Of a DNA stretch of 64,000 nt, positions 1 to 21,852 are shown one piece after another. Every line of letters begins with the position of its first letter. Position 1 is the stretch's first letter. Source of the stretch: Xenorhabdus cabanillasii. GTDB taxonomy: Bacteria > Pseudomonadota > Gammaproteobacteria > Enterobacterales > Enterobacteriaceae. The DNA lies in assembly GCF_003386665.1 (NCBI RefSeq), contig NZ_QTUB01000001.1:3038001-3102000 (forward strand), given 5' to 3'. Below the pieces are notes generated by a model. That model was not told the DNA's origin. It worked only from the letters and a program-made list of their open reading frames with translations, and made no database searches. Made by a program: the position numbers and the translations under genes.

Positions 1-3000
1 AAGGCTTAATACCGCTTGTCCTGTCGAGTTAAGAGTCACCGCCGATGGTATTGAATTAACTTCTTGCGCTTCTTCAACCAGAGTAACCAACGTGTGTCTG
101 TCGATTTTACCGTTGTCGGATACAGGTATCGTATCGAGAATAATAAATCGCTGCGGACACATCCAAATAGGTAAGGTTTGCTGTAACCAGTGAGGCAGTA
201 TTGGTAAAAGTTCGGTAGATAGCGGCGCGTTGTCAGTTAAACGTAAGCCCGCAACCAGTTGCAATGCGCCGGTTGACGTTGTATGAGCAAATACTAACGC
301 TTGTTGTATCGCAGGATGTTCGCATAAACGGTGCTCAATTTCGCCTAACTCAATTCGGTAGCCACGGATTTTAATCTGGTGATCATTGCGCCCCAGAAAT
401 TCGATATTCCCGTCTGGTAGCCAGCGCCCCAAATCACCCGTACGGTAAAGCCGCTCACCTGTTTGAGGATGTGTGATAAAAGCATGTTTCGTTTTTTCAG
501 CATCGGCCCAATAACCCAGTGCCAGACCTTGTCCACCAATATACAATTCACCGGTTACCCAGACAGGACAGGGTGAAAGCACTGTATTAAGCACATGGAA
601 AGTCTGATTAGCCAGAGGCTTACCATATGGAATGCTGCGCCAGTCTGGATCGACTTGTACAATAGGATAGGTAATAGACCAGATTGATGCTTCAGTTGCA
701 CCTCCTAAACTAAGGAGGTTTAACTCAGGGTGAAGCGTATGTAATTTGGCCGGCAAATTGATTGGTATCCAGTCACCACTCATCAATACCCAACGCAGGT
801 TGTGTAGGGAATGGGGATAGCTACGGGCATATTCCTCAAGCAGTTGCACAAATGCGGGAACGGAGTTCCAGACAGTCACCGATTCTTGTTGTAACCATGC
901 TAATAATTTGTCCGGCTGCCTATTGTCACCCGCAGCAGGCATTACCAGTTTTGCCCCACAACTTAGCGTGCCGAACAGGTCATAAACGGAGAGATCGAAG
1001 GTTAACTCTGAAATTGCCAATACGCTATCGTGCTCATTGAGTGCAATGCGCTGGTTAATATCGAGAATAGTATTGACCGCACCTTGATGATCAATCATTA
1101 CGCCTTTTGGTGTTCCGGTAGAACCGGAGGTGAAGATAACATAAGCCAGATCTTCAGGGTGTACGGATAAACTTGGTTTGCTGGTGGCTGGCAACTTGTT
1201 GAGTAGTGTTTTATCCAGAGGGATGATCTGGACATTGTCGGGCCAGTTCAACTGTTGAGCGAACTTAGTTTGAGTCAATACAGTATCAACTTCCCCTGAT
1301 GCTAATAGCTGATGAATCCGTTGTTGCGGATAGCTGGCATCAATAGGCAGATAAGCACGTCCTGCTAATAAAATTGCAATAACTGCAATAACCTGTTCCC
1401 GGCCTTTTTCCATCACCACACCAACCAGAGGTGAAGTCTGATTTTCTTGTGCTTGCAGATGAGCCGCCAGTGTCAGGCTTTGTGACCACAAAGTGCGATA
1501 GTCTAACTGACAGCAGGCATCGACAACGGCGATATGTTGTGGATAACGATTTACTGCCTGTTCAATCAACGAGCAAAGAGTATGTGGCGGAAAATCACTT
1601 GTTGTCGCATTACTATTCTGGCACAAAGCGCGATCATGCGTCGGGAACCAGTCAGGAAGCGGAGTACTCCATAGGTAGTCTGGTTCAAGCAGGGTAGCGA
1701 TACCGGCCTGATAGTGAGCAAACATGTTTTCTGCTACTTGAGGCTGGAACAGTTGCGGCAAGATCGCCCATTGTATGGTGACACCACCTTCTGCACCGGA
1801 AATTAGCATACAGTCAAGATAAACATGAGGTGTTTGCGCACCAAAAAGATTGAGTGTTCCTAATCCTGATGGCGCTTTACCCGCAGTACCGGTTGTATCG
1901 TTGAATACGATTGGCATACCGGCATTCAGGTTGTGGCGATGCTGATTTTTCTCCCTGAGTACCAATTGCCCGTCAAACAGTGCGTGTTGAAGATCAGCTA
2001 TCCATTGTTTTTGAATCCGGTTTGCAGCATCGCTAAATCCGGAGATATTGCGTAAATCGACTTCCAACAATGAGGTGGTGGACAAATTGCCGACCAGCAT
2101 ATCGCAATGTTGTGGCATTAACAGGCGATTGCCATGCAGGACATTGATAGTGAAATGCTCGCTGTTGCTCCATACTGACAAAGTATGGGCAAATAGCGTA
2201 AGCATCACTTGGGACGGTGATATGCGGTGCTCTGCTGCACGTTGTTGCAAACATTGCCATTGTTGTGGGCTGATATATCCTGTCAGGCACTGTTGATCAA
2301 GTTGCTGTGACTGGTGATCTTTCAGTGGTAACATCGGGGCGTCTGGCAGTGAAGGTAAACGATCAAGCCAATATTGGCGGCTTTGTTGCCAGGTTGTTTC
2401 GGCTTTCTCATTCTCCAGTGCCTGAATATAGTCAGCAATTGTCGCTGCCGGCGGCTCTGGTTGCCAGTCAGGTTCCTGATACCAGTGGTGTAAATCACGC
2501 AAGATTAAGGTCAGACTTTTGCCATCTGCCACCAGTAGGTCAATAGTCAGGTGTAATAAATGTGTCCGGTCATCGGTATGGTACAGCGTTAAATCAAATA
2601 ACGGCCAGTTATCGCTAGGAACGCCTTGAGTACGCAGAGTGTTACGGGCGTTATTCAGTTGTGTCTCGCACTCCTCTTGTGGCATGTCACGACAATCAAT
2701 GACTGTCGGCGTATAGCAGGGCACTGCTGGCAGAATATGATATTGTCCCTCTTTTACATAACCGCGTAATTGCCCATGATGGTTTATCACACGGTTCCAC
2801 GCGGCAGTAAAACGAGGCAGATCAAGCCCGTCAATAGTCAGCTCAGCATAGAAGTGGGCAATACCATTGCCAAACTGAAACAGTTGGCTCTCTCCCAACC
2901 AATAAGCATATTGCAGAGCAGTGAGTGGCAGAATCTGCTCTGATGCTGGTTCTGTTTGATGTGGTGTAACCAGTGTTGTTGAATTTGTCTCAATAACCCG

Positions 3001-6000
3001 CAGGGTACGGCAAAATTCACTCAATTTAGGGTGTTCAAACAGTTGTTGCAGATTGGCTTGTTCATAACCCTGGCGACGTAGTTGCACCACCATGCGGGTA
3101 GCAATCAAGCTATCGCCGCCACTTTGGAAAAAATCACTGTGACGTTGAATTGTTTGCGGAAGTAGTGAGTTCCAGAGATCAATGACTTGCTGTTCAATAT
3201 CATAAAGCTGAGCATCTGCTGTTTCCGGTTGTCCAGCTTCCCCGCTGACCGAGTGTGCCATGTTATTTTTCGCGGCCATTGTTGGTAATGCTGCCAATGG
3301 TAACTGCTCTTGTTGTTGAATATGCAATGGGTAAGGCAAGGCAGAAAATTGTACTGCTATTTCAACAACATTCAGTCGTGCCTGCTGTTCGGATCGCGCC
3401 AGAATCAATTGCTGATACAGTTCTGGCCCATCTTGTCCCGGCCATTCCAGTGAAACACGATAACCGGATTTCTCCAGACATTTACGCCAGTCCGCAAGTT
3501 CCAGCAGTGCGCTATTACCTTGATCATCACCGCGATCATCGGCCCAGGCATTAATACCTTCAATAAATCCGACACTGGCGAGTTGCATAGCACTTTCGCG
3601 TTTGGTGGATTCAATAATCAGCAGCCACCCACCGGCTTTTAGTAACCGGGACAGACGTTTCAGGGTATTCTTTAGATGGATGGCATCATGTAAGACGTTA
3701 ACCGCTATAATCAGGTCATAACCAGATTCAGGATGTTGACTAAAATCAATATGCTGATTAATGTCGAACAGGGCAAATTTTACGGTTTCGCCATAGTGAT
3801 TAAGTGACTGGCGGGCATCATCCAAAAATAACGGTGAAACATCAGTAAAGTGGTAACTTTCAATGGATTGAGAATTCTGTTTAAGCACTTTTTTTGATGT
3901 GGCGCCTGTTCCTGCGCCGACTTCCAGCACAGTGAAATGTTCAGATGTCTGGCTCAATTGTCGGACAATTTCAGCGGCAGCCTGATTCAGGCAACGTAAT
4001 GCAGGGTTTTCGCTGTAAAGGCTGGCTGTAGTTTGTTTATCGGCAAATAGCAGTTCCAGTGCATTGCCATATCCGGCAAGCAGGGTGTTATGTTGGTCAA
4101 TGCAGGTTGCAACATAACGGCTGATGGTTTGGCACCACACCGCATCATCCAGTTTTGCTGTAGGAGCAGGGATCTGGCTGAGCGGTTGCAGACAACGGTA
4201 TCCACCAGCGATTTTTTCCATAAATCCTTGCTTGCTTAATAATCCTAGCCATTGGGTAAGCAGGCGTTGATACCGTGGTGCCAGTTGTAAACATTGTTCA
4301 ATCTCTTCACGGGAGTGACATTGTTGTGAAGAGGTGAACAGGTTATGGCGTAGTAAGGTCTGGCCTATACCCAATAACGCTTGTTGCTCAATATGTTGCC
4401 AAGAGAGTTCAAATACTTGTTGTTCCGTTAATGTCGGCAGTGGTAAGACTTCGGTGTTTATTACCAGTGGTTCTGGCAACGATAATGACAAATTATCTTC
4501 TGCTACCAGCCATAAATTATAACTCTGAGTATCGTCCTGACGTGGCTGGATTTCTGCTAACCGTATTTCAGGTTGAGAACGCAGATATTGTTCGGCCTGA
4601 TGCAATGCAGGGTGTTGTGGCCAGAAGTCATAACGAGTATGACCGACAGGTGGCGTATGAAGATCATAATGCTCCAGACATTCAGGCTGGTGGCAAATTT
4701 GTACAACTTGTACTAACAATGCGTTATAGGCAGCAAATAGTGCTTCAATGACCCCCGTTTCCAGTACATCGTCCATGCAATACCAGTTAAACAGCAGATT
4801 ACCATCCACTTCCATAACCTGATGATCCAGCCAGACTTGTGGCGTTTGGCTCAGCACAAAGACCGGATCACCCAATAATTGAGTGATGGATTGTTTTATT
4901 GCAACACCTTCTTGTGCCATTCCCAACATACTGGTGAAAACAACTGGCGTCAGAGGTTGCCGGCTTTGGGCTTCACCCGATTGCTGGCGAGCCAATTCCC
5001 GCAGTACTTCAACCCCATTGACATGACTATGACTCAGCCGTTGCCAGAACAGGGCCTGAGTTTTTTCCATGCTGGTACGCAGGGAGGTGGTTTTACGTAA
5101 ATCAAAATCCATCAGCATGACGGAGGTAAAATCACCAATCAGCTCTTGAACCTCTGAATGGAAAGGCTGGCGGTTAAAAAATGTCAGGTTGAGAGTAAAT
5201 AGCGGATGACGGCTGTACCATTCAAGCGTATGAGCAAACAGTGTTAGCAGACCCGCGGAAGGTGTGACCCCCCATTTTTTCCAGCTTTGTTTAAGTGTTT
5301 GCCAGTCAGATTGTGCCAACCGACCTTCATAAGTCGTGAATTGTGGCTGGTTACGCTGAGGTAATTGTGGGTTCAACGGTAATCTTGGCGCTGGAGGCAG
5401 TGAAAGCAATTGTTCCTGCCAGTATGCCCATGATGCGCGCCACTCTTTACTTTCACGTTGTGCTTGTTCTGCCATCACATAGTCGCGGAAAGTAAATGTT
5501 TGTGGAGCCAGTGGTTGTTGCTGATGATAAGCTCGTTGTAGATCGTCCATCATGATCCGGAAACTCTGTACGTCAAACTGCAACAGATCCAAGTTCATAT
5601 GTAAGCGGCAGCGCGCATTCGGCAGCAGGGAAACAGAGACTTCAAACAGTGGCCACTGTTCCGCAGGCGGCACTTGATAAGAAAGAGTATGACGACGCTG
5701 AGCCAAAGCTTGTTCACAGGCTGTATCGTTCAGCGTTCGCAAATCACCCTGTGATAAAACATACCAGGGCGTTTCAGACAGAATTCTCTGTTGTCCCTCT
5801 TCATCAACAATCATGCGCAACATGCCATGACGCTGAATTAAGGCATTCCATGCCTTTTCAAAACGTAGGATATCAAAGCTGTTTAGTACCAGATCCCATT
5901 CAAACAGGACGTGACACGCCACACCACCAAAATCAATGGCCTGAGTACGGCCAACCCAGTAAGCGTGCTGAATTGGCGTCAGAGGAAATGGTTCATGGTG

Positions 6001-9000
6001 TTGGGTACTGTCAATAATGATCTCAGGCTGAGCTGATACAGAGGCTTGTTCAGGCAATGCGTCGCCAATAATCGTATTAAGCCCCTCCAGTGTCATATTC
6101 TGATAGGCCAATTCAGCGGTTAATCTGAAACCAAATTGCTGGTGGATCACCGTATTTAGTTCAAGGAACAGTAGGGAATCCAAACCAAATTGCAATAGAT
6201 CTTGTTGTGGCTCCAGATGTTCAGGCTGTTCTAAGCGCAATAATATTGCAACATGCTGACGTAGCCAATGAAGCCGCTGTTTACTATCCTGATAGAGTGC
6301 GTTATCAGTAGAGGGTGCAGATGTCGGTGTTGTAACGGCATGGGCCGTGTCAGTCTGCAAACGCCGCAAAATGTCAGGATGACGCTCATCTAACCGCATT
6401 GCCAGATAGCAAGGAGAAGCGGTACGCAGAGATTGATTGAGATGCCAGATTCCCTCATTGACACTGAATGGTAACATGCCATCTTGCGCTAGTTTTTCCA
6501 CTAATCGCCGATCGCTGGCCATGCCAATGCCACCCCAGACACCCCAAACTAACGTTTTTACCATCAATGTATCGGTTGCGGTCAGTGCTAAAGATTCCAG
6601 ACAAGCATTGGTGATGGCATAAGCGCTTTGTCCCTGAGCACCTAGCATTGAAGCAGCGGAAGCATGAAGCAGCAGATATTGTGCTTTATGTTGCTGAAGT
6701 ACTGTTTGTAACGTTAACGCGCTCTGTGCTTTTACGCATAACATCTGCGACAGATGTTGACGCTCAAGTTTTGCCAGAGGAGTGTGATCAGCAATACCGG
6801 CAGCATGAATCGCGCCAGCAATCCTATCTTCTTGTGCCAGTGATTGCACGGCATTTAACAAAGTTGATTTGTCAGTGACATCAACGTTAATCCAGCGTAT
6901 TTCGCATTCGCCACTCAGTGACAACTCATGAACAAAAGCATCCCAGTCCTCTTGTTTGCGGCGGGCAAACACAGCAACCTTACGAGCGCCTTGGGCCAGC
7001 AACCAACGGATAGAAATTTGCCCGATCCCCCCCATACCGCCAGCAACGATGTGCCAACCCTGATGGGGAATCGACATTGGTTGCTGCGATAGCACAAGTG
7101 GCTGACGCTGTAAAACAGGGACAGTCACTTGATTTCCGCGTACTTTCAGCCAGCGATGTTGTTCATTCAGATAACTGAGTGCTAATAACAAAGCATCAGT
7201 ATCATTGATATCGGCGATATCAACCGCCTGAATATGGCGATGGGGATACTCTTCAACCGCGACACGCAACAGTGCCCAGACAGCGTATTGAGCGGGATTG
7301 ATATCCTCTTTTGATAAGGTGCTTTCAGGTTGAGCACAGCAAGTTATAACCGTTAAGGATGTCGTTTTATCACGTTGTAATTCGCTAATAACCTGATCAC
7401 ACAATTCAACGACATCATCACCCTGGAGCAGTAATAATGTATTTCCGCTTTCCGGCTGTAAATTTATGCCTGCCTGACGCCAATCTTGAGCAATTGTGTC
7501 ACTCGCTGTTGATGAACGAAGAGCATACGTCGTTGAAGATCTTGGCTTATCTACAGTAGTTATGGTGCGCCAATGCAGAACATAGTGAGTATCAGGGCAT
7601 GGCTGTGGTACAGGAAGCCATGATTTTGTCGTCATCGGCGTTGTCGCCAATTGGCGAGGTAGGTCGGCCCTGTCACTCATGAATGCGAATAAACGTTCGC
7701 CAACATAGATCAATGCAGGGAAATCGGTGAGTAAATTTGCCTCCAATAAGCGGCGCTTGGCATATGGCAGAGCACGGTGAGGGCGATACATTTTGCTGAC
7801 TGTTAGCCCGACAACTTCTTGGTAATAGCCTTGCTGAACACAATGGTTCAATAGTTGTTCCAGCAAAGGGCGCCAGCAAGGTTGCAGTCGGCCAGCCCGA
7901 ATCGTGTCAATGGCACTGAAACCTTGTTCAGTCTTGTGCCCATGGCATTGATAAACCAGTGCATCGGTATACAGCGCTCGAAGTATTGCTGCATTGGCGT
8001 TTTGCTCAATGGCAGGATTGAGCAGGGAATTAATATCAAGCCCAGTATTAGTATTGACCGAATGTTGTACAAAATTGTGTTGCACAGTGCTGGTTGTAGC
8101 GAAGCTATAATGCTGTTTATCAAATGGATAGAGCGGAGCATGACATTTTGTCCCGGTAAACGGAAAGAGACGCGGCCAGTCAAGATGTGCACCGGCACAG
8201 TAGAGTTGCATTAGTGCTGTTTGCTGAGCTGTCTCTGGAGTGCCTTGACGATGTGCACTGGCAACCCAGGTTTCATGTGGCAAACTGACGCGTCGCCCGA
8301 TCCCTGTTAACTGTGAATCAGCACCAAATTCTACGAATAATGCTACACCTTGTTGACGGGCAAACTCAATCGCTTGATAGTAACGCACCGTCTGACGCAT
8401 ATGGTGACGCCAGTAGTCTGGTGAACCTAATTGCTCGGTAGTTGCAATATCTGCTGTCAGGGTAGAAATTAACGGAATTTCTCCCGATACAGGATGTAGC
8501 TTGTTGTTATACAGGGAAAAACGCTGAGAAAATTCTTCCAGAATTGGCTCAAGCATGGCTGAGTGTGCTGCGCAGGCAACTTTAAGGCGCTGGCAACGGA
8601 TCTGCTGCTGTTCGAGACGTTGTGTCAATGTGTCAATTTCTGTTTCTGTACCCGCCCAAACCCAGTGTTGTGGACCATTGCAAACCGCCAGATCCAATGC
8701 CAGTGTATGCGTAAAGGGAAGAATATCTTCTTCGTTGGCAAAAACTGCCAACATTGCGCCCCCTTGGGCACATTTTTGCATCAATTTGCCCCGTACCGCG
8801 ACCATCGGCATCACTTGCTCCGGCGTGAAAATCCCGGCAACAACAGCAGCGGCGAATTCGCCAACGGAGTGTCCCAATACGTAATCCGGCTTTAAGCCTA
8901 GTGCTTGCCAATGTGCTGCCAGCGCAATCTGATGCGCTACAATAGCTGGTTGTGCATATTCAGTGCTAGTTAATGCGGCATAATGCTCTCCGAACATCAC

Positions 9001-10761
9001 TGTTTTTAATGGCAGAGCCAACTCAGAGGTACAGGCGGCACAACAACGATCCAACATAGCAGAAAAAACAGGAGAGCTGGCATACATTGCTTTTCCCATG
9101 CCAGACCATTGACATCCCTGACCGCTGAATTGCCACAGTTGTTTGCTTTCACCCTTGACTTGTCCACTAAAAATATCCGGTGTTGGGCTATGGTTCTCAA
9201 AGGCGGATAAGCTTGCGGCATTTTTTGCTGTATTTTGTGGTGTTAGTGTCAACGCTAAACGCCAGGGGAATGAAAGATCGCGCCCCTGTAAGGCCGTCCA
9301 GGCCAAATCGGCATGATTTTTTGAGGCAAGTAAAGTTGCGTAACGTTGTGCCAATTGACGCAGTGAAGATTCAGAAGCTGCGGAGAGCAACAAAGGTGTG
9401 CTTTGTGCCTGGGCTTGCGAATCATTGACACGGTGACGTTGTAATTCTTCTGGCAATGATTGCACTACGATATGGCAATTGGTGCCGCCAATACCGAATG
9501 AAGAAACGCCCGCAGTACGCAATTCTTGTGTCCAACGTTGTCCTTGTATTGCCAGCCTGAATGGGCTTTCTTCCAGCCGCAATGCCGGATTGGGGTGCTG
9601 TACATTGATAGTCGGAGGAATGTAACCATGCCAGACTGACAGAACCGTTTTAATCAAACTGGCAATACCCGCGGCAGTATCGAGATGGCCGATGTTGCTT
9701 TTCACTGAACCAAGGTGACAAGGCGGTACAGCCGCACTACGTTCGGAGAATATGCTGCGTAACGCATCAACTTCTATTGGATCGCCAAGTGGTGTACCTG
9801 TGCCATGTGCTTCAATCATTCCGACATCATCAATGCTGACATCGGCCAGTTGTAATGCTTCGGTAATCACACTGCGCTGACCATTAACCGAAGGGGCAGT
9901 AAAACCAACTTTCTCATTGCCGTCGTTATTAATGGCACTGCCACGCAACACCGCCATGATAAGATCGCCATCGCGTAACGCATCGCTCAGACGTTTCAGC
10001 GTAACAATCCCAACGCCATTGCCGCCGTAAGTGCCGTTTGCCTGACTATCAAAGGGACGGCAATGCCCATCAGGTGAAAAGATCATTCCCGGTTGATACA
10101 AGTAACCGCTTTCTTGTGGGAAAGAAACTGCCACACCGCCGGCCAGCGCCATATCACATTCCCCTGAACGCAGGTTTTCGCAAGCCATATGCACGGCCAC
10201 CAGTGAACTTGAACAGGCTGTTTGTACTGTCAGTGCGGGACCTTTCAGATTTAATTTATAGGCGGTACGCGTTGCAAGATAATCTTTATCGTTGCTCATT
10301 AGCGCCTGTAGTCCTTTCACTTTGCCAATATCGGTCATAGTGAATTGTGACCATGAAGGCCAGGTGCTGACTCGGCTACTGGCGAAAACGCCTGTTTTCA
10401 AGCGTACATTACGTGGCGAATAGCCGGCATGTTCAAGGGCATGCCAGGCTGTTTGCAGAAACAGGCGTTGCTGAGGATCGAGCATTTCTGCTTCCTGACG
10501 CGAATAGCCAAACAGTGTGGCGTCAAATTGTTCCGCATCCTCTAATATCGCTGCCTGATTGACAAAGTTTTCACTCTCAATGACTTCAGGTGGAATACCT
10601 GCATCCAATAATGTTTGGCGGGAGAGAGTGGTAGTACACTCAATCCCTTGTTGCAGGTTATGCCAGAAAGTAGCGCTATCTGGTGCCTGTGGAAAACGGC
10701 AGGCAAGGCCAATCACTGCGATGGGATCACAATTATCGTAGTGAGGCGTTAAATCAGTCAT
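1..10761 (-). CDS. irp1: Irp1/HMWP1-like hybrid PKS/NRPS, 3' end outside window
   Basis: This giant assembly-line enzyme extends a thiazoline siderophore-type chain. It has 3587 codons and is still open at base 1. Domains read from the translation are KS (about 10-430; Cys183 in TACSSS, His319 in HGTGTP, His359 in NIGH), AT (545-830; Ser632 in GHSVGE), a short methyltransferase-like remnant (890-1030), KR (1040-1440; GGMGGIG, SAYAITN), ACP (Ser1529), Cy (1593-2020; DLLQFDVQS), C-methyltransferase (2105-2455; VLEVGAGTG), PCP (Ser2551), a second Cy (2612-3020; DLLVADGKS) and A (3055-3560; FTSGSTGTPKG, NGKIDR). HMWP1 of yersiniabactin is about 3160 aa, ends in a thioesterase and has no A domain, so the last Cy-A module is extra. 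Its pocket residues read D-L-Y-N-L-S-L-I-W, the cysteine code. The ATG overlaps the irp2 stop (ATGA) and is preceded by AAAGGAG. The PKS/NRPS assignment is certain; the exact product is inference. Confidence 0.93.
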   Translation of the reverse strand, partial: MTDLTPHYDNCDPIAVIGLACRFPQAPDSATFWHNLQQGIECTTTLSRQTLLDAGIPPEVIESENFVNQAAILEDAEQFDATLFGYSRQEAEMLDPQQRLFLQTAWHALEHAGYSPRNVRLKTGVFASSRVSTWPSWSQFTMTDIGKVKGLQALMSNDKDYLATRTAYKLNLKGPALTVQTACSSSLVAVHMACENLRSGECDMALAGGVAVSFPQESGYLYQPGMIFSPDGHCRPFDSQANGTYGGNGVGIVTLKRLSDALRDGDLIMAVLRGSAINNDGNEKVGFTAPSVNGQRSVITEALQLADVSIDDVGMIEAHGTGTPLGDPIEVDALRSIFSERSAAVPPCHLGSVKSNIGHLDTAAGIASLIKTVLSVWHGYIPPTINVQHPNPALRLEESPFRLAIQGQRWTQELRTAGVSSFGIGGTNCHIVVQSLPEELQRHRVNDSQAQAQSTPLLLSAASESSLRQLAQRYATLLASKNHADLAWTALQGRDLSFPWRLALTLTPQNTAKNAASLSAFENHSPTPDIFSGQVKGESKQLWQFSGQGCQWSGMGKAMYASSPVFSAMLDRCCAACTSELALPLKTVMFGEHYAALTSTEYAQPAIVAHQIALAAHWQALGLKPDYVLGHSVGEFAAAVVAGIFTPEQVMPMVAVRGKLMQKCAQGGAMLAVFANEEDILPFTHTLALDLAVCNGPQHWVWAGTETEIDTLTQRLEQQQIRCQRLKVACAAHSAMLEPILEEFSQRFSLYNNKLHPVSGEIPLISTLTADIATTEQLGSPDYWRHHMRQTVRYYQAIEFARQQGVALFVEFGADSQLTGIGRRVSLPHETWVASAHRQGTPETAQQTALMQLYCAGAHLDWPRLFPFTGTKCHAPLYPFDKQHYSFATTSTVQHNFVQHSVNTNTGLDINSLLNPAIEQNANAAILRALYTDALVYQCHGHKTEQGFSAIDTIRAGRLQPCWRPLLEQLLNHCVQQGYYQEVVGLTVSKMYRPHRALPYAKRRLLEANLLTDFPALIYVGERLFAFMSDRADLPRQLATTPMTTKSWLPVPQPCPDTHYVLHWRTITTVDKPRSSTTYALRSSTASDTIAQDWRQAGINLQPESGNTLLLLQGDDVVELCDQVISELQRDKTTSLTVITCCAQPESTLSKEDINPAQYAVWALLRVAVEEYPHRHIQAVDIADINDTDALLLALSYLNEQHRWLKVRGNQVTVPVLQRQPLVLSQQPMSIPHQGWHIVAGGMGGIGQISIRWLLAQGARKVAVFARRKQEDWDAFVHELSLSGECEIRWINVDVTDKSTLLNAVQSLAQEDRIAGAIHAAGIADHTPLAKLERQHLSQMLCVKAQSALTLQTVLQQHKAQYLLLHASAASMLGAQGQSAYAITNACLESLALTATDTLMVKTLVWGVWGGIGMASDRRLVEKLAQDGMLPFSVNEGIWHLNQSLRTASPCYLAMRLDERHPDILRRLQTDTAHAVTTPTSAPSTDNALYQDSKQRLHWLRQHVAILLRLEQPEHLEPQQDLLQFGLDSLLFLELNTVIHQQFGFRLTAELAYQNMTLEGLNTIIGDALPEQASVSAQPEIIIDSTQHHEPFPLTPIQHAYWVGRTQAIDFGGVACHVLFEWDLVLNSFDILRFEKAWNALIQRHGMLRMIVDEEGQQRILSETPWYVLSQGDLRTLNDTACEQALAQRRHTLSYQVPPAEQWPLFEVSVSLLPNARCRLHMNLDLLQFDVQSFRIMMDDLQRAYHQQQPLAPQTFTFRDYVMAEQAQRESKEWRASWAYWQEQLLSLPPAPRLPLNPQLPQRNQPQFTTYEGRLAQSDWQTLKQSWKKWGVTPSAGLLTLFAHTLEWYSRHPLFTLNLTFFNRQPFHSEVQELIGDFTSVMLMDFDLRKTTSLRTSMEKTQALFWQRLSHSHVNGVEVLRELARQQSGEAQSRQPLTPVVFTSMLGMAQEGVAIKQSITQLLGDPVFVLSQTPQVWLDHQVMEVDGNLLFNWYCMDDVLETGVIEALFAAYNALLVQVVQICHQPECLEHYDLHTPPVGHTRYDFWPQHPALHQAEQYLRSQPEIRLAEIQPRQDDTQSYNLWLVAEDNLSLSLPEPLVINTEVLPLPTLTEQQVFELSWQHIEQQALLGIGQTLLRHNLFTSSQQCHSREEIEQCLQLAPRYQRLLTQWLGLLSKQGFMEKIAGGYRCLQPLSQIPAPTAKLDDAVWCQTISRYVATCIDQHNTLLAGYGNALELLFADKQTTASLYSENPALRCLNQAAAEIVRQLSQTSEHFTVLEVGAGTGATSKKVLKQNSQSIESYHFTDVSPLFLDDARQSLNHYGETVKFALFDINQHIDFSQHPESGYDLIIAVNVLHDAIHLKNTLKRLSRLLKAGGWLLIIESTKRESAMQLASVGFIEGINAWADDRGDDQGNSALLELADWRKCLEKSGYRVSLEWPGQDGPELYQQLILARSEQQARLNVVEIAVQFSALPYPLHIQQQEQLPLAALPTMAAKNNMAHSVSGEAGQPETADAQLYDIEQQVIDLWNSLLPQTIQRHSDFFQSGGDSLIATRMVVQLRRQGYEQANLQQLFEHPKLSEFCRTLRVIETNSTTLVTPHQTEPASEQILPLTALQYAYWLGESQLFQFGNGIAHFYAELTIDGLDLPRFTAAWNRVINHHGQLRGYVKEGQYHILPAVPCYTPTVIDCRDMPQEECETQLNNARNTLRTQGVPSDNWPLFDLTLYHTDDRTHLLHLTIDLLVADGKSLTLILRDLHHWYQEPDWQPEPPAATIADYIQALENEKAETTWQQSRQYWLDRLPSLPDAPMLPLKDHQSQQLDQQCLTGYISPQQWQCLQQRAAEHRISPSQVMLTLFAHTLSVWSNSEHFTINVLHGNRLLMPQHCDMLVGNLSTTSLLEVDLRNISGFSDAANRIQKQWIADLQHALFDGQLVLREKNQHRHNLNAGMPIVFNDTTGTAGKAPSGLGTLNLFGAQTPHVYLDCMLISGAEGGVTIQWAILPQLFQPQVAENMFAHYQAGIATLLEPDYLWSTPLPDWFPTHDRALCQNSNATTSDFPPHTLCSLIEQAVNRYPQHIAVVDACCQLDYRTLWSQSLTLAAHLQAQENQTSPLVGVVMEKGREQVIAVIAILLAGRAYLPIDASYPQQRIHQLLASGEVDTVLTQTKFAQQLNWPDNVQIIPLDKTLLNKLPATSKPSLSVHPEDLAYVIFTSGSTGTPKGVMIDHQGAVNTILDINQRIALNEHDSVLAISELTFDLSVYDLFGTLSCGAKLVMPAAGDNRQPDKLLAWLQQESVTVWNSVPAFVQLLEEYARSYPHSLHNLRWVLMSGDWIPINLPAKLHTLHPELNLLSLGGATEASIWSITYPIVQVDPDWRSIPYGKPLANQTFHVLNTVLSPCPVWVTGELYIGGQGLALGYWADAEKTKHAFITHPQTGERLYRTGDLGRWLPDGNIEFLGRNDHQIKIRGYRIELGEIEHRLCEHPAIQQALVFAHTTSTGALQLVAGLRLTDNAPLSTELLPILPHWLQQTLPIWMCPQRFIILDTIPVSDNGKIDRHTLVTLVEEAQEVNSIPSAVTLNSTGQAVLSL

Positions 10762-13700
10762 TGTGCAGCTCCTTTATGACGTTTTTCCCGTTGCTGCAGA
10801 CGCTTTTGCTGTTGATGCTGACGAAGAGCAATCGACGATTGATTTCTGTCTGGCGTATCTTTTCGGCAACGCAAGCTGAGCGCTTCTGGTGTTGGATAAG
10901 CGAATAAATCAGTGACAGCAAGATGGTGAAAACCTGCATGTTGTAATTTGCCGTGCAATTGAATTAGCTGTAGCGAATTGGCTCCGGCATCAAAAAAGTT
11001 CTGTTGAACATTGATGGAATGGCTGGTTACCGATAAAAACAGGCGTTGAATTTCACTGCATATCTGCGGATCGCATCCTTCCGAACGTGATGATGCAATA
11101 ACAACGGTTGCGTTATCTTCAACCCAGTTATCTTTGACTGCATTATCTGCAACCATCATGCATTGCTGGCGTGGCATCAGTTGTTCCAACGCTGAATGCC
11201 AGCTCTCTGGCTGTGCTGCGAGGGTACGTAATAGTGCTATGTAGCTGTTAAACATGGTTTGCAACTGATGTGGTTCAAATAACTCTTCGACCGCATCCCA
11301 GTTCAGGCAAAGTTCATCGTCAGATTCGTAAACCTGATGATCCAGCCAGATTTGTGGCGTTTGCGATATACCCCAAACGGGTTTCATCCATGATGAACGT
11401 GAAAGGAATTGCCCTTCATGAGTTCCTAATGCACTGGTGAAAACAACAGGCATGGTGGCTGCATCCGGGCCACGATTTTGTGCCAGCTCACGCATCACTC
11501 TGATCGCCGAAATATGGCGGTGATCCAGATCCTGCCATAACTGTTGTTGTAACCGCCGTGCACTTGATAACCAGTTTTTCTCCGGATGCCAGGCGAGAAG
11601 TGACAGTGAGGTGAAATCACCCAGAATATGATTAATGTCCTCATGCCAGTGTGGACGATCGAACAGGGTAAGATTAAGTGTTAACTCCGCTCTGGTGCTG
11701 AATGCAGAGAGAACAGCTGCATAAGCTGCAATCAAGAGGGCAGAAGGTGTTATCTGATGTGGGGCAGCATGTTGCTTCAACTGTTTCCAGTCATGTGCAG
11801 ATAACCGATCACTGTAGCGTACAAAACGAGGGGATTGCACACTTTCCGGTGCAATACGCACTGGTAATTGTGGTGCCAGTGGTAAAGTTTTCACTTGCTC
11901 TTGCCAATATTGCAACGAACTCTGATGCACTGGTATTTGTTGCTGGCGTAACACACAATCTCGGAATGTGATGTTCAGTGGTGGCAATTCTTGTTGTTCG
12001 TTGAGATATAGCTGTTCTAATTCAGCCAGCAATATCTGCATGCTCAATCCATCTAATAGCAGATTATCCAGACTGACAAATAATCGGCAGACAGGGCTGC
12101 TGTCTTGCGCAAGTTGGAAGTCGAACACTGGCCAGTGTCCGGCATCTAATACCTGATGTGACAAACGTTCGCGTAATGTATCCGCCTCAGAAATATCAGT
12201 GAATTGGTGCTGTTTAACTGAGAAGAGAGGGACATCTTTCAATATTTGCTGTTGCCCATTAATAACCACCGTTCTAAGTACCGGATGACGCTGGATCAGG
12301 CGATTTAATACTCGGTCCAGGCGTTGAACATCCAGTTGTTCTATCCGGTATTCGATAAAGAAATGTGCGCCAACACCACTCAGGGTAAAACCAGGGTGAC
12401 GTCCAACCAGATAAGCCTGTTGAACTTCGGTCAGTGGGAAAGGTTGATATTTATCCTCATCTTGCTCTTTTGATATCGAATATGTCTTTAATGAAATGTC
12501 AGACAGAGGAGCCGGTAGAGGAGAAAGTGTCGTGGTGAATGCCGCTAATTGCGGGTTACGGAAAAGGTGACTCAGTTCACCTTTCAAGCCTTGTTGTGCC
12601 AGTTCACCGATCAGACGTGTAGCTAAAAGGCTATCACCACCAAGTTGGAAAAAGTCGCTGTTACGACCTGGCTGATCAGTATTCAACAAACGTTGCCAAA
12701 TGGTAGCAACCGTTTGCTCCTCTGCATTCAACAGAATCATGTCATTCTGGTGCAGCCCGGTTTCGGTTTTTGTGGTGGACAGTAAGCCTTGTGCCAGAGC
12801 GTTACGGTCGATTTTACCGTTAGGTGTAAGGGGCAGATGAGGAATAACATGCAAGCGTTGTGGGATCATATATCCCGGCAAATATTGTGCCAATACTGAT
12901 TTAATTTTTTCCCGATCAGGTATGGAGACGTTGTCACTTGCTTGCATCAATAACACATTAAGGTTGCCAAGGGTAATTGGAGTTTCTGTCTGTAGTGGCA
13001 GAAGAGATAACCATTGTGATGCAGAGCGTAGCTGAATACCGTGAGGTGAGAGCAACTCAGTGGTAATCAGAGAGATAGATGAAGCGTGATGCAACTCTAT
13101 GGCCAATACTAACGCCCCGGGTTGTGCCAAAGGCATCAACGCCTTGATACAGTTTGTCGGATTTTCTTCACGGTGTAATACATTGTTTAGTAAGATAATA
13201 TCTGCCTGATGCTGTAGTGACTCAGGAACTTGCTCAGGCCAGCGTTTTATTGATACATGAGTGTGGGTACTTAACCGAGTTTGCATCTGGTTAATAAGTG
13301 CCTGAGAACGTTCAAAGCCGATATAGGACAGATGTTGATCAGTAATTTGTTCTGCCAGCCATTGAGCACAGAGACCACTTCGGGCATCGAACTCCATCAC
13401 GGTGACAGGGCGTTGTAACCGTTGGGAAAGAGCAACGATAACTTGTTTTAAACCTGCTAACCATTGTTGAGTTTCGGGCAGTATAAAGAGCTGTTGTTCC
13501 GGTGCGAACTGTGGATCATCAAGCAATGTAACTGCGGTTTGTTGTCCGGTCAGAATACTACGCAGTGTAGAATGCCAGCGCTCAGGGATATATCCTGCTT
13601 CAGCTTCGTTATGGAATGTTGAGGATAATAATCCAGTCTGATATACGTGATGTGCAGATTCAATCAATAGATTGCATTGGCAAAGATATGCCAGCATACG

Positions 13701-16700
13701 GGCAAACCAACCATGATATTCTGATCGGGGCTGGTAATCTTTCAGACAATCGGCGAGAGATTGGGGGGAAGTAAACGTAATACCGTAACGAGACAGATGT
13801 TCCAGCAAAAATGTTGCAACTTGAGGTTCACTGTTGCCATCAGTTGTATCTGTTTTATCGATAATGGCCTGCATTGCAGGAAACAGATCACGGTAAGTTG
13901 TCGGTAACTGTGAGGCACGATTTATGCGTTGGTATAAGGTATCGCCTTCCAGTTCAAGGAACGCCACCAGCGATTTTTCTTTTTCGCCACTGGTTAAAGC
14001 AACGCCTTTACGAATACCGGTTACTTGATTGAGGGCAGCATCAATCTCTCCTAGCTCAATGCGATATCCCCCAATTTTGACCTGACTGTCGCGGCGTCCC
14101 ATAAATTCCAGCCAGCCTTCGGGATGATAACAACCCAGATCACCAGTTCGATACCAGCGTTCTTCCTGATCGATGACGAATTGGGCGGTAGTGCGTTCTT
14201 CATCATTAAAATAGCCTAGTGCGATACCGGCTCCACCAATCCAAAGTTCACCGACAACCCAGTCAGGACAATCTTGGCCATCTTCACCCACGACACGATA
14301 ACGCTGGTTAGCCAGGGGATAACCATAAGGAATCGAACGCCACTGTGCATCCACTTCTTTGACGATATATTCATTTGACCAGATAGCTGCTTCCGTTGCA
14401 CCTCCCATGGCACTGAGTACACCAGCAGGATTGAATGCACGGTAACGTTCAGGCAGTGATAAGCCGATCCAATCTCCGGATAGCATCACGGTTCGAAGCG
14501 TTTTCGGTGCATCAACTTCCATTCCTTCACAATAGGTCAGCAACATATCAAACAGTGCCGGTACACTGTTCCACAACGTAATATTGTGTTGCTCGATCAA
14601 CATTTCCCAAGTTGATGGATCGCGGCGTTGTGCTTCATTAATGAGTACCAGTGTTCCTCCGGCACTGAGAATGCCAAAAATGTCGTAAACGGAGAGGTCG
14701 AAATGCAGTGCGGAGAGTGCCAGCAATCGATCACGACTTTGAACCTGATGACGACGGTTGATGTCCAGACAGGTATTCAGTGCACTTTGGTGACTGATAA
14801 CGACACCTTTCGGTATGCCCGTTGAGCCGGAGGTATAAATGATATAAGCCGGATCGGTTACGGCACGCTTAGCCATGTGGGTTAAAGGTAATAGTTGGTC
14901 ATCTTGGTGCCAGGAAATACAGCATATATTTTGTGACCAATCTGGATGTTGTTGTTTAGGATTAATGACAACGATAGTGATGCCAGCACTTTCGCAGATA
15001 GCACGACGTCGGTTTAATGGCTGATCCACCGGAACTGGAACGTAAACACCTCCAACATAAAGGATGGCTAATACAGCAACGATTTGCCCGATGTCTTTTT
15101 CCATGCTGACAGCAACTCGATCTCCCGGCATAACCGACATTTTTTGCAGTACGGTTGCTAATCGGCGGGCTGCCAGACTGAGTTCGCCATAACTGATTTT
15201 TTCATTATGATGGGTCACTAACGCAACAGCATGGGGGGTATGCTCTGCTTGATTAAACACACCTTCATGCAACAAGGCGTTTGGTAGCGGTTCAACTGTG
15301 TTGTTGATTTGACGTCGTAGATGGTATTGTGACTCAGGCATCAAGTCCGGGAGTTTCTCACTCCACTGCGCGGCGTTTTCCGTCAGGTTCTCAATAATCC
15401 CTTGATAGACAGTGAATAAAGTATCCATCAAGCCGTCAGGGAAGAGTTCATCATTACTGTCCCACTGAATGTTTAGTGTGCTTTCATGTTCAAAAGCAAC
15501 AAAATCTAACCATACCTGTGGTGTCTGTGAGATGCCCCAACCTGGTTTTCCCAGAACATCGCGGGTATTCTCACCATATAAAGGCCGGCCTAAATTGCTG
15601 GTGAACACAATTGGCGCACCGTGTGGGTGGTTACCGCGTCTCTTAAGTTCACGCAGCACTTCTACACCAGACCAATGACGATGTTCGTATGCTTCAGCAA
15701 ACGTTGCTTGTGCATTCTGAGCCAGTTGGCAGAACGGTAAATTATCACCGGGAATATCCAACAGTAGAATGTTGGTAAAGTCTGCCAAGATGTTATCAAC
15801 CGCAGGGTGCAGCGGAGCTCTGTCAAATAGCGTCAGGTTAAATAATAAGTGCGTGGTGCTATCTTGAGTTGCCTTAGCCTGTGTTGTGCTGCTCCAGCGA
15901 CACAATAAAGCAGCAAATGCGGTTGCCAATGCCATGGTTGGTGTCACCCCATTTTGCTGCGCGAGGTATTTAAAATGTTCCCAATGCTCAGGCGCTAAAC
16001 AGAAATGTCTGCGCTGGATCCGGACATTTTTTATTAGGGCAGGATCTTTGGCCAGAGGAAGCTGAGGCGCAAGTGGTAAGGTATCTAACCGGCTGCGCCA
16101 GAATGCCTCGGCTTCTTGTCTGGCTTGCTTAAATTGAGCCTGATATTGCGTCAGATAACTGCAAAAATCATAGTCAGGGGATATAGATGGCAAGTTACGT
16201 TTGGCAATCAATGCTGCCAGTTCAGTAAAGAACAGGCTGAAACTGGCGGCATCCATGATCAGCAAATCGATATTCGCATGCAGACGATGCTGATTATCAC
16301 CGAACAGGCTAAGTTGAATATCGAAAGTTTCTCCTTTTTCAACCTGTAATACCCGATGGCTTAATTGTTCACGTATGTTAGTCAGCGCTTGTTGCTGTTC
16401 ATTGGCTGTCAGGTTACGCAGATCGTGAACGGTTAATTTTTGCCAGTAAGCATTAGCCATTCCTTGTTGGCGGCCATCTGGCAAAAACTGTACACGCAAC
16501 ATGGGATGCCGCTGAATCAGAGCATGAATAGCTGCCTCCAATTGTTCAGGCTCCAGCCCAATACCATCAAATTCGTGATACAAATGGCAACCAACTCCTC
16601 CTAATGTTTGTTCCGGTGAACGTCCAACAAAATAAGCGTGTTGTACTGCCGTTAATGGGAATGGACCAGCATCTGCGATCTGTGGCAGTGGCGTTGTATC

Positions 16701-16958
16701 TTGAGAGACAGTTTGAGAGACCGGTGCATGGCGTTGCAGAAGCTGGCTCCAGGTATGTAGTGTTGGATTCTGGTAAAGCTCACGCAGAGTAACGCGATAT
16801 CCTTGACGTCTGAATTGGTTTAACAATGCCATTATTTGCATTGAATCCAGTCCGTTGCGAATTAAATCGTCGTTATCACCCACCAAATTATTTTTTTGGT
16901 TAAACAGACCAGAAATAAGCTGGCGCAGTGAATCTGGGGAGGGAAGGTCCATGTGCAT
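10758..16958 (-). CDS. irp2: Irp2/HMWP2-like nonribosomal peptide synthetase
   Basis: The 2066-aa NRPS matches HMWP2 of yersiniabactin (about 2035 aa) in size and layout. Domains are an aryl carrier (Ser39 in NGLDSMQ), Cy1 (100-540; DLLIMDAAS), A (560-980 and about 1340-1400; YTSGSTGIPKG, GGYRIELGE, NGKIDR), an MT/epimerase-like domain inserted in the A domain (about 990-1340), PCP1 (Ser1443 in GGDSLL), Cy2 (from about 1510; DNLLLDGLS) and PCP2 (Ser1995 in GANSLQL). By family knowledge the aryl carrier holds salicylate from a separate AMP ligase, and the two Cy domains condense and cyclise cysteines into a salicyl-bis-thiazoline. The A pocket reads D-L-Y-N-M-S-M-I-W, close to the cysteine code. 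The insert carries EFDARSG where an active methyltransferase has ExGxGxG. The C-terminus is a basic Gln-rich tail that may dock to the next protein. It lies 59 nt after the ABC gene and overlaps irp1 by ATGA. Confidence 0.95.
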   Translation of the reverse strand: MHMDLPSPDSLRQLISGLFNQKNNLVGDNDDLIRNGLDSMQIMALLNQFRRQGYRVTLRELYQNPTLHTWSQLLQRHAPVSQTVSQDTTPLPQIADAGPFPLTAVQHAYFVGRSPEQTLGGVGCHLYHEFDGIGLEPEQLEAAIHALIQRHPMLRVQFLPDGRQQGMANAYWQKLTVHDLRNLTANEQQQALTNIREQLSHRVLQVEKGETFDIQLSLFGDNQHRLHANIDLLIMDAASFSLFFTELAALIAKRNLPSISPDYDFCSYLTQYQAQFKQARQEAEAFWRSRLDTLPLAPQLPLAKDPALIKNVRIQRRHFCLAPEHWEHFKYLAQQNGVTPTMALATAFAALLCRWSSTTQAKATQDSTTHLLFNLTLFDRAPLHPAVDNILADFTNILLLDIPGDNLPFCQLAQNAQATFAEAYEHRHWSGVEVLRELKRRGNHPHGAPIVFTSNLGRPLYGENTRDVLGKPGWGISQTPQVWLDFVAFEHESTLNIQWDSNDELFPDGLMDTLFTVYQGIIENLTENAAQWSEKLPDLMPESQYHLRRQINNTVEPLPNALLHEGVFNQAEHTPHAVALVTHHNEKISYGELSLAARRLATVLQKMSVMPGDRVAVSMEKDIGQIVAVLAILYVGGVYVPVPVDQPLNRRRAICESAGITIVVINPKQQHPDWSQNICCISWHQDDQLLPLTHMAKRAVTDPAYIIYTSGSTGIPKGVVISHQSALNTCLDINRRHQVQSRDRLLALSALHFDLSVYDIFGILSAGGTLVLINEAQRRDPSTWEMLIEQHNITLWNSVPALFDMLLTYCEGMEVDAPKTLRTVMLSGDWIGLSLPERYRAFNPAGVLSAMGGATEAAIWSNEYIVKEVDAQWRSIPYGYPLANQRYRVVGEDGQDCPDWVVGELWIGGAGIALGYFNDEERTTAQFVIDQEERWYRTGDLGCYHPEGWLEFMGRRDSQVKIGGYRIELGEIDAALNQVTGIRKGVALTSGEKEKSLVAFLELEGDTLYQRINRASQLPTTYRDLFPAMQAIIDKTDTTDGNSEPQVATFLLEHLSRYGITFTSPQSLADCLKDYQPRSEYHGWFARMLAYLCQCNLLIESAHHVYQTGLLSSTFHNEAEAGYIPERWHSTLRSILTGQQTAVTLLDDPQFAPEQQLFILPETQQWLAGLKQVIVALSQRLQRPVTVMEFDARSGLCAQWLAEQITDQHLSYIGFERSQALINQMQTRLSTHTHVSIKRWPEQVPESLQHQADIILLNNVLHREENPTNCIKALMPLAQPGALVLAIELHHASSISLITTELLSPHGIQLRSASQWLSLLPLQTETPITLGNLNVLLMQASDNVSIPDREKIKSVLAQYLPGYMIPQRLHVIPHLPLTPNGKIDRNALAQGLLSTTKTETGLHQNDMILLNAEEQTVATIWQRLLNTDQPGRNSDFFQLGGDSLLATRLIGELAQQGLKGELSHLFRNPQLAAFTTTLSPLPAPLSDISLKTYSISKEQDEDKYQPFPLTEVQQAYLVGRHPGFTLSGVGAHFFIEYRIEQLDVQRLDRVLNRLIQRHPVLRTVVINGQQQILKDVPLFSVKQHQFTDISEADTLRERLSHQVLDAGHWPVFDFQLAQDSSPVCRLFVSLDNLLLDGLSMQILLAELEQLYLNEQQELPPLNITFRDCVLRQQQIPVHQSSLQYWQEQVKTLPLAPQLPVRIAPESVQSPRFVRYSDRLSAHDWKQLKQHAAPHQITPSALLIAAYAAVLSAFSTRAELTLNLTLFDRPHWHEDINHILGDFTSLSLLAWHPEKNWLSSARRLQQQLWQDLDHRHISAIRVMRELAQNRGPDAATMPVVFTSALGTHEGQFLSRSSWMKPVWGISQTPQIWLDHQVYESDDELCLNWDAVEELFEPHQLQTMFNSYIALLRTLAAQPESWHSALEQLMPRQQCMMVADNAVKDNWVEDNATVVIASSRSEGCDPQICSEIQRLFLSVTSHSINVQQNFFDAGANSLQLIQLHGKLQHAGFHHLAVTDLFAYPTPEALSLRCRKDTPDRNQSSIALRQHQQQKRLQQREKRHKGAAQ

Positions 16959-20615: not shown

Positions 20616-21852
20616 AGGTGTTTTCCTTTTGGAAATCATGGCATTTGCGTAATGTCCAGAACAGGCCAGCGAGGGTGAAGAGTGATGCGAGAGCGAAAAG
20701 AGAAGAATAGCCCGCTTTGGTAACAATCAGCCCACCGACCATTGAACAGATGATCGCAATGCCCATATCTGCCGATTGCATCAAAGCAAAATCCACACCA
20801 GATTGGCTGCTTGCTGCCAGAGACATCATCTGAGTGTATAAGGCAACAAATTTGGCCGCAGTGATTAACGTGATGAAGACGTATGCGGCTGAAAGTAAAG
20901 ATACGGAGGATTCTGGTTGTTGGGCAAGCCAGAAAATCCCCACCAGCACCATACATTCAAGCAGCATAAAGCTCAGTAGTGTTTGCATGGCGCCTAACTT
21001 ACGTACCAGAACACCGCCAAACAGGACACCAGATAATCCGGCTAATGCACCACCGCTGGCTGCAATAATGCCTAGTTGAGTTAAATCTACTCCGCGATCG
21101 ACCAAAAATGGGGAGAGCATACCGAGTGACAAGCGTGTACCAATCATACATAACAGGATTAAAACCAATGCCTGTTTAACCGGAGTACGGCGAAATGCAC
21201 TCTTGAGGGATGGGGGGACGGTAGCCTTTGAAATATCTGATTCTCTCTTCCCCTGCGTTTTTCGGATGAACAAAATAGGCAGTGACATCAAGAGAATCAC
21301 TATGGCTAATACGCCTGCACCAATGTGCCATCCATACAGTGAGGTCAGATATAAAAACAGCCCGCTACCGATAATGGCTCCCAGATAGCCGCCGCCAACC
21401 TGCATGACATTGCACCATGGACGATGCTGTGGTGATAATCGATCAATGGCTTGACCATCTGTGGTGGTATCTACGACAGTCAGGCAAAGTGTTATCAGAA
21501 ACAGCAGCGCGATAATTAACGGCATATGTTCGGCAGGTTTTGCCAATGACATTAAGCTGAAAAGGAGAAAAATTAAAATGTTACCGCAGAGCATGATGCG
21601 GCGGGGGTTGGTATCCCCGGAACCTGATTTACGATAACGCTCTACAATCGGTGCCCAAAGGAATTTGCATGCCCAGGGTAACATTAGCAGGTAAAGTAAC
21701 CCTATTTTATCCGGCGTGACACCGTGACTGCGCAGAAACGCTGGCATGCTTTGTAACGTTAACATACCAATGGTACTTTGGATGGTGTAAACACCAGCCA
21801 AAGTCAGAAGCAGTAACGAGATATGACGAGAGTTTGAAATATTATGCGTCAC
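20605..21852 (-). CDS. ybtX: YbtX-like MFS siderophore transporter
   Basis: This is a 415-aa protein of the major facilitator superfamily with about 12 hydrophobic segments over its whole length. The N-terminal part (GVTPDKIGLLYLLMLPWACK) and the conserved KFLWAPIVERY resemble the RhtX/FptX/YbtX group, which sits in siderophore clusters and moves siderophores across the inner membrane. YbtX is about 426 aa. Translation starts at GTG: the GTGA at 21852-21849 overlaps the stop of the receptor gene, so the two are translationally coupled. The substrate and direction of transport are inferred from context. Assignment to MFS is firm, the YbtX label likely. Confidence 0.85.
   Translation of the reverse strand: MTHNISNSRHISLLLLTLAGVYTIQSTIGMLTLQSMPAFLRSHGVTPDKIGLLYLLMLPWACKFLWAPIVERYRKSGSGDTNPRRIMLCGNILIFLLFSLMSLAKPAEHMPLIIALLFLITLCLTVVDTTTDGQAIDRLSPQHRPWCNVMQVGGGYLGAIIGSGLFLYLTSLYGWHIGAGVLAIVILLMSLPILFIRKTQGKRESDISKATVPPSLKSAFRRTPVKQALVLILLCMIGTRLSLGMLSPFLVDRGVDLTQLGIIAASGGALAGLSGVLFGGVLVRKLGAMQTLLSFMLLECMVLVGIFWLAQQPESSVSLLSAAYVFITLITAAKFVALYTQMMSLAASSQSGVDFALMQSADMGIAIICSMVGGLIVTKAGYSSLFALASLFTLAGLFWTLRKCHDFQKENTYAQ

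What the first reader, a model, noticed from the sequence alone, without database searches (positions are those of the whole stretch)
1..3000. Irp1-like enzyme has an extra Cy-A module after the HMWP1 layout
Directly visible: after KS-AT-KR-ACP-Cy-MT-PCP, where yersiniabactin HMWP1 ends with a thioesterase, this protein continues with another Cy domain (DLLVADGKS) and a full A domain, and stays open at base 1. Known: HMWP2 carries the only A domain in yersiniabactin assembly and loads all three PCPs. Inference: this system adds a third cysteine-derived ring through its own A domain and makes a product nearer to piscibactin or photoxenobactin than to yersiniabactin.
Basis: partly seen in the sequence, partly recalled or inferred. 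Interest (0 to 1): 0.75.

Follow-up and report, generated by a model that had tools for sequence, protein, structure and literature searches.

The report
Photoxenobactin synthetase with non-cyclising Cy module
The window holds the known photoxenobactin/piscibactin assembly line of a Xenorhabdus bacterium; its extra cysteine module is complete, and its ring-forming domain seems to have lost residues needed to close the ring, which would explain the odd sulfur ends of these compounds.

Summary
The frame open at base 1 runs 1,035 bases further: the whole protein (3,931 aa) is KS-AT-KR-ACP-Cy-cMT-T-Cy-A-T-TE, followed by a thiazolinyl imide reductase, a type II thioesterase and a fused salicylate ligase/synthase. 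This is PxbG of the published pxb cluster; the published X. szentirmaii PxbG numbering fits P0020 and the residues are conserved here. The extra Cy4-A2-T6 module was described in 2022, so the feature is already known.

The inference of an added third ring is wrong in detail. The third ring comes from Cy3; module 6 brings a fourth cysteine, and published products show no ring from it. The sequence suggests why: in 35 of 35 PxbG/Irp1-type proteins examined, Cy4 lacks the dyad Thr, helper Gln, gating Phe and a conserved Arg; 0 of 480 other Cy domains lack all four. The replacements are nearly fixed, so Cy4 looks like a conserved condensation-only Cy domain that uses cysteine as sulfur donor for release. 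I found no printed account of this pattern, but the 2022 paper's supplementary alignment could not be read.

The parts
1..10761 (-). PxbG/Irp1-type hybrid PKS/NRPS, residues 1-3587 of 3931; the rest lies left of the window (G000:C1:3036966-3038000)
9460..10728 (-). KS domain (about residues 12-434)
   Evidence: Pfam, NCBIfam; TACSSS motif
8290..9135 (-). AT domain (residues 543-824)
   Evidence: Pfam
6532..7059 (-). KR domain (residues 1235-1410); no methyltransferase hit between AT and KR
   Evidence: Pfam; HMWP1 comparison
6043..6249 (-). ACP (about residues 1505-1573)
   Evidence: Pfam
4687..5997 (-). Cy3 with canonical residues (R, F, T, D, Q all present)
3622..3927 (-). core of the carbon methyltransferase (Pfam part, residues 2279-2380)
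2998..3204 (-). T5 carrier domain (about residues 2520-2588, serine 2551)
1684..2940 (-). Cy4 of module 6 (residues 2608-3026): D2741/D2746/S2749 and D2983 kept; E2624, G2877, N2954 and M2985 in place of Arg, gating Phe, dyad Thr and helper Gln
   Evidence: model, fold match
106..1563 (-). A2 adenylation domain of module 6 (residues 3067-3552), core motifs like those of A1
1..18 (-). first residues of T6 (3582-3646, serine 3610); the rest of T6 and the TE (3668-3910, serine 3737) lie outside the window
10758..16958 (-). PxbF/Irp2-type NRPS (T-Cy1-A1 with insert-T-Cy2-T)
   Evidence: 48% identity to E. coli HMWP2
17018..18877 (-). ABC transporter (YbtP/YbtQ-like by position)
   Evidence: Pfam
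18801..20726 (-). ABC transporter (YbtP/YbtQ-like by position)
   Evidence: Pfam
20605..21852 (-). major facilitator transporter (YbtX-like by position)
   Evidence: Pfam
21849..23846 (-). TonB-dependent outer-membrane receptor
   Evidence: Pfam
24194..25225 (+). AraC-family regulator (YbtA-like by position)
   Evidence: Pfam

Best explanation
The protein is PxbG of a complete pxb (photoxenobactin/piscibactin) cluster in a Xenorhabdus. Shown here: gene and domain order, conserved catalytic residues, and the four-residue departure of Cy4. Published for X. szentirmaii: A2 is suggested to load T5 and T6, and T6 is needed for photoxenobactins C and D. Inferred: Cy4 condenses the T5-bound, C-methylated thiazoline intermediate with cysteinyl-T6 but does not cyclise and dehydrate it, because the dyad Thr, helper Gln, gating Phe and Arg are replaced by Asn, Met, Gly/Ser and Glu. 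The fourth cysteine therefore serves as a sulfur donor: cleavage of its C-S bond (the release proposed in 2022) gives a thiocarboxylate-type end, and TE or the type II TE clears the leftover residue from T6.
For: Identity: domain order; reductase, type II TE and fused ligase/synthase downstream; published PxbG positions S2579, S3666, D3287, K3583, G2305, D2771 and S3793 fit P0020 and map to S2551, S3610, D3256, K3552, G2282, D2741 and S3737 here. Residue pattern: 34 of 34 PxbG-type proteins have Asn at the dyad Thr and Met (33) or Ile (1) at the helper Gln. With P. caribbeanensis (Ser and Ile) added, 0 of 35 Cy4 keep any of R, F, T, Q, while 301 of 480 other Cy domains keep all four and none keeps zero. 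In the separate DNA scan, 36 of 40 loci aligned to Cy4 and 35 of those 36 have the Asn, V. anguillarum included. The reference numbering was checked on E. coli HMWP2: 11 of 11 positions fit the published letters. Cy1-Cy3 of the same line are canonical except Cy1, which lacks the Gln. Function of these residues: PchE Q482A gives about 9.8% heterocycle with linear product tripled, and mutation of the gating Phe harms activity (PMC8807600 and PMC9547227, passages). Cy4 is a Cy fold: model pLDDT 87.3, the best 18 PDB matches are Cy-containing chains (query TM up to 0.90). In a quick tree the 19 Cy4 rows form one clade (SH-aLRT 100) on a stem of 1.76 changes per site, yet the new residues are nearly fixed within it. 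Products: no fourth ring reported in X. szentirmaii (PMC9396620); deletion of module 6 abolishes photoxenobactin E in V. anguillarum (PMC12421891). Evolution: in Photorhabdus that lost the cMT in two separate deletions, Cy4 but not Cy3 evolves faster.
Against: No single lost residue is decisive: of the 480 other Cy domains, 44 lack Thr, 102 lack Gln, 40 lack Phe and 20 lack Arg (3 of these by a gap), and PchE-Cy1 cyclises with Ala at the Thr position. Cy4 keeps the latch Thr that PchE uses. No activity or product was measured for this strain. Whether Cy4 joins through S or N is open. The faster Cy4 evolution rests on three species and two losses, is weak for P. heterorhabditis (p 0.03 and 0.08), and among 42 uncorrected tests one A2 test (p 0.0499) and one TE test (p 0.046) also fall under 0.05. 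The tree was a quick one and warned of long branches and odd composition in several Cy4 rows.
Confidence: 0.75

Rival explanations
1. Cy4 is a full heterocyclising domain and module 6 makes a fourth thiazoline, which is later hydrolysed or lost, so that isolated products are breakdown forms.
For: A fourth thiazoline was the earlier proposal for piscibactin, as reported in PMC9396620; Cy4 keeps DxxxxDxxS, the dyad Asp and the latch Thr.
Against: Four residues linked to cyclisation or the active site are replaced in 35 of 35; four labelled cysteine sulfurs enter photoxenobactin C, which the authors take as three rings plus the dithioperoxoate, and it is the main product on days 1 and 2.
Confidence: 0.1
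2. Cy4 is a decaying relic; module 6 is a passenger and products leave from T5.
For: Piscibactin and photoxenobactins A and B are ascribed to T5; the Cy4 D2771A mutant only halves photoxenobactin C.
Against: Cy4 is 86-95% identical in 17 further Xenorhabdus genomes, and the T5, T6, A2 and TE residues checked are conserved in 34 of 34; the T6 mutant loses photoxenobactins C and D and module 6 deletion abolishes photoxenobactin E in V. anguillarum.
Confidence: 0.05
3. Cy4 cyclises slowly for reasons outside these four positions (substrate fit to an alpha-methyl donor, domain motion), and the residue changes are adaptations to that donor.
For: The 2022 paper speaks of low catalytic efficiency, and its main text names no such residues; the cMT-less lineages show faster Cy4 change, so donor and Cy4 seem coupled.
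Against: The changed positions include one whose mutation in PchE strongly lowers cyclisation while linear product rises (Q482A).
Confidence: 0.1

Closest known systems
pxb cluster and PxbG of Xenorhabdus szentirmaii DSM 16338 (photoxenobactins; PMC9177418, PMC9396620)
   Same: Homologues of the five biosynthetic genes pxbF-J, same domain order, no cMT1, extra Cy4-A2-T6, fused PxbJ; Cy4 86% identical
   Different: No architectural difference found; sequence divergence only
irp cluster of Vibrio and Photobacterium (piscibactin; PMC12421891, PMC9396620)
   Same: Irp1-type proteins of V. anguillarum, V. ordalii and P. indicum, among others, have the same Asn/Met Cy4; the original P. damselae Irp1 was not among the sequences examined
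   Different: Cy4 about 43-47% identical; Irp5 and Irp9 are described as two proteins (PMC12421891, passages), here one fused protein
yersiniabactin HMWP1/HMWP2 (E. coli irp1/irp2)
   Same: KS-AT-KR-ACP-Cy-MT-PCP and TE; HMWP2 48% identical to PxbF
   Different: HMWP1 has a second methyltransferase, no Cy4-A2-T6, and its single Cy has the usual Thr and Gln
PchE-Cy1 of pyochelin synthetase (PDB 7emy)
   Same: A Cy domain that lacks the dyad Thr
   Different: Keeps helper Gln, gating Phe and Arg (alignment) and does cyclise (PMC8807600 passages)

Membership tests
PxbG (photoxenobactin synthetase) | Domain order KS-AT-KR-ACP-Cy-cMT-T-Cy-A-T-TE | tested here: met
PxbG (photoxenobactin synthetase) | No cMT1 between AT and KR | tested here: met
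   no methyltransferase hit there, against HMWP1
PxbG (photoxenobactin synthetase) | Published catalytic positions conserved (T5, T6, A2, cMT, Cy4, TE) | tested here: met
PxbG (photoxenobactin synthetase) | Downstream reductase, type II TE and fused salicylate ligase/synthase | tested here: met
PxbG (photoxenobactin synthetase) | Makes piscibactins and photoxenobactins | not testable with these tools
   needs culture and mass spectrometry
HMWP1 (yersiniabactin) | Ends PCP-TE with no A domain | tested here: not met
HMWP1 (yersiniabactin) | Two methyltransferases | tested here: not met
   one MT in P0001, two in HMWP1
Heterocyclising Cy domain (applied to Cy4) | Cy fold and DxxxxDxxS motif | tested here: met
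Heterocyclising Cy domain (applied to Cy4) | Asp of the Asp-Thr dyad | tested here: met
   D2983; 35 of 35 Cy4
Heterocyclising Cy domain (applied to Cy4) | Thr of the Asp-Thr dyad, or helper Gln in its stead | tested here: not met
   Asn and Met here; neither Thr nor Gln in 35 of 35 Cy4, against 6 of 480 other Cy domains
Heterocyclising Cy domain (applied to Cy4) | Gating Phe | tested here: not met
   Gly, Ser or Arg in 35 of 35 Cy4; Phe in 440 of 480 others
Heterocyclising Cy domain (applied to Cy4) | Cyclodehydration activity | not testable with these tools
   published products suggest none (PMC9396620)

The most novel reading that the evidence does not exclude
Cy4 founds a distinct, conserved class of Cy domains that have given up ring closure and work as cysteine acyl-transferases, making the Cy-A-T-TE unit a sulfur-donating release module. 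It occurs in the PxbG/Irp1-type proteins examined (35 of 35) and, with the same four losses, in a SAR324 NRPS without a PKS part in the 8 kb seen (P0188), so the unit may have spread between assembly lines and could be used to find further thiocarboxylate natural products.
Probability: 0.5. Interest if true: 0.55.

Novelty: already known. Interest (0 to 1): 0.35.

Why it matters
The module, its cluster and its products are published, so the finding as given is not new. What may be new is a sequence reason for the published puzzle that Cy4 does not cyclise: a joint loss of four residues, absent from 480 other Cy domains. It would give a simple rule for predicting whether a Cy domain closes a ring, correct ring counts predicted for piscibactin-type clusters, and point to other assembly lines that may end in thiocarboxylic acids.

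Tried and rejected
Rejected: truncated or disrupted A domain; stop without PCP; membership in HMWP1; a third ring from module 6 (see best explanation). Loss of the dyad Thr alone as explanation was dropped once PchE-Cy1 was seen to have Ala there and yet cyclise, and the survey showed, among 482 Cy domains, 38 without Thr but with Gln and 96 with Thr but without Gln; only the joint loss is peculiar to Cy4. Led nowhere: searches for printed accounts of Cy domains that condense only; PMC12971057 and PMC8795117 held nothing on this point in the passages seen. Searches behind 'not found in print': and the word search in PMC9396620 (no threonine, dyad, asparagine or glutamine in the main text). The paper's supplementary Figure S3, an alignment of Cy domains, was not readable and may show the pattern. 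Papers: PMC9396620, parts 1-3 of 4 of the text; PMC9177418, PMC9547227, PMC8807600, PMC8795117, PMC12971057, passages; PMC12421891, passages and section 10; others in search listings only.

Rows dropped: the survey kept 515 of 612 HMM domains (those with both Asp and filled active-site columns). One search adds P0026, whose first Asp is Gly, counts P0189 as Cy4 and keeps P0188 apart, giving 480, 35 and 1. The survey was drawn by similarity, only the best 120 rows of two searches were listed, and the sequences are related, so counts are not independent. The tree used 104 of 448 domains, 19 of 34 Cy4. In the scan, 36 of 40 loci aligned to Cy4, and X. hominickii is counted three times there.

Full report
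What is there. The window is G000:C1:3038001-3102000 of a 4.34 Mb one-contig genome. Its nearest PxbG relative in the protein search is from Xenorhabdus sp. Flor (98% in Cy4). The frame 1-10761 (-) continues to genome position 3036966; the whole protein P0001 has 3,931 residues. Pfam and motifs give KS, AT, KR, ACP, Cy3, one methyltransferase, T5, Cy4, A2, T6, TE. Downstream lie a thiazolinyl imide reductase (TIGR01761, 319.9 bits, cut-off 188.8), a type II thioesterase, and a fused aryl-acid adenylate ligase (best model TIGR02275, 589.7 bits, below its cut-off of 723.55) plus salicylate synthase (TIGR03494, 466.4 bits, cut-off 325.15). Upstream lie an HMWP2-type NRPS, two ABC transporters, an MFS transporter, a TonB receptor and an AraC regulator.

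What it is. This gene set is the pxb cluster. PMC9396620 (parts 1-3 of 4 read) and PMC9177418 (passages) describe PxbG as lacking cMT1 and holding an additional Cy4-A2-T6 module, and PMC9396620 describes PxbJ as bifunctional. The X. szentirmaii protein P0020 fits the published residue numbers (9 positions looked at, 7 mapped onto this protein). In the same genus 18 of 30 genomes, the own one included, hold Cy4; PMC9177418 gives 58% of Xenorhabdus.

What module 6 does. Published (X. szentirmaii): T6 mutation loses photoxenobactins C and D; A2 mutation lowers products 2-6; four cysteine sulfurs enter photoxenobactin C; Cy4 is said to form only a thioester. In V. anguillarum deletion of module 6 abolishes photoxenobactin E, with piscibactin still made at a very low level (PMC12421891, section 10). 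So the extra module works without giving a ring that anyone has reported in the papers seen.

Why it may not close the ring. Structural papers name a catalytic Asp-Thr dyad, a helper Gln and a gating Phe in Cy domains (PMC9547227, passages; PMC8807600, passages). I checked the HMWP2 numbers on E. coli irp2: 11 of 11 letters fit. In Cy4 here the places hold Asn 2954 for Thr, Asp 2983 kept, Met 2985 for Gln, Gly 2877 for Phe, and Glu 2624 for the Arg that can meet the first Asp of DxxxxD. Among 480 other Cy domains, 301 keep all four of Arg, Phe, Thr, Gln, 158 three, 15 two, 6 one, none zero; of 35 PxbG/Irp1-type Cy4, 35 keep zero. Thr and Gln seem able to stand in for one another: of 482 domains 340 have both, 96 only Thr, 38 only Gln, 8 neither, and two of those 8 are the P. 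caribbeanensis Cy4 and its SAR324 relative. Cy4 keeps both Asp of its motif (34 of 35), the dyad Asp, the latch Thr, Tyr, and Asn (34 of 35). Asn, Met and Glu are shared by Xenorhabdus, Photorhabdus, Vibrio, Photobacterium, Psychromonas and Aliamphritea proteins with few exceptions, so Cy4 does not look like a relic. A quick tree puts the 19 Cy4 rows in one clade with a long stem. The model is a good Cy fold.

A natural test. Three Photorhabdus lack all or most of the cMT: P. noenieputensis and P. caribbeanensis share one deletion junction, P. heterorhabditis has another, so probably two losses. The 2022 paper calls methylation a checkpoint before module 6. As that predicts, relative-rate tests find Cy4 faster in the cMT-less lines: 30 against 10 changes (p 0.0016) and 30 against 11 (p 0.003) for P. 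caribbeanensis, 24 against 9 (p 0.009) and 22 against 8 (p 0.011) for P. noenieputensis, 21 against 9 (p 0.03) and 21 against 11 (p 0.08) for P. heterorhabditis. Cy3 shows no significant difference (p from 0.09 to 1.0), nor does the control pair P. africana and P. akhurstii in any domain. Against a clean picture: one A2 test (P. noenieputensis against P. akhurstii, p 0.0499) and one TE test (P. heterorhabditis against P. cinerea, p 0.046) also fall under 0.05. 42 tests were run without correction, and the first two species are not independent.

Limits. No activity was measured. Dyad Thr alone is not decisive (PchE-Cy1). The residue pattern may be visible in a supplementary figure that I could not read. 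The finding as handed over is therefore an ordinary, known module; the added value is a testable residue rule.

Noticed in passing
L021, L037, L049; P0015, P0021, P0189: PxbG of three Photorhabdus lacks all or most of the carbon methyltransferase by in-frame deletion, two different junctions; Cy4 evolves faster there.
   Followed up: yes
L039 (P0188): A SAR324-cluster NRPS has a Cy-A(MT)-T-Cy4-like-A-T-TE end with the same four Cy4 losses; beyond a search of that genome with P0002 its cluster was not studied.
   Followed up: partly
L013, L032, L035: Xenorhabdus hominickii DSM 17903 carries part of pxbG on three contigs, identical over 4.2-7.7 kb: duplication or assembly redundancy.
   Followed up: partly
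P0031: A PxbG/Irp1-type protein cluster of 803 member sequences is named after Vibrio cholerae.
   Followed up: no
P0276, P0277, P0278, P0047: Cy domains outside the PxbG family with Asn at the dyad Thr and Thr at the helper Gln place, as if the hydroxyl had moved.
   Followed up: no
P0026: One PxbG-type Cy4 has Gly in place of the first Asp of DxxxxDxxS.
   Followed up: no
G000 whole genome: 84 matches to the Condensation family in 4.3 Mb: an NRPS-rich genome.
   Followed up: no
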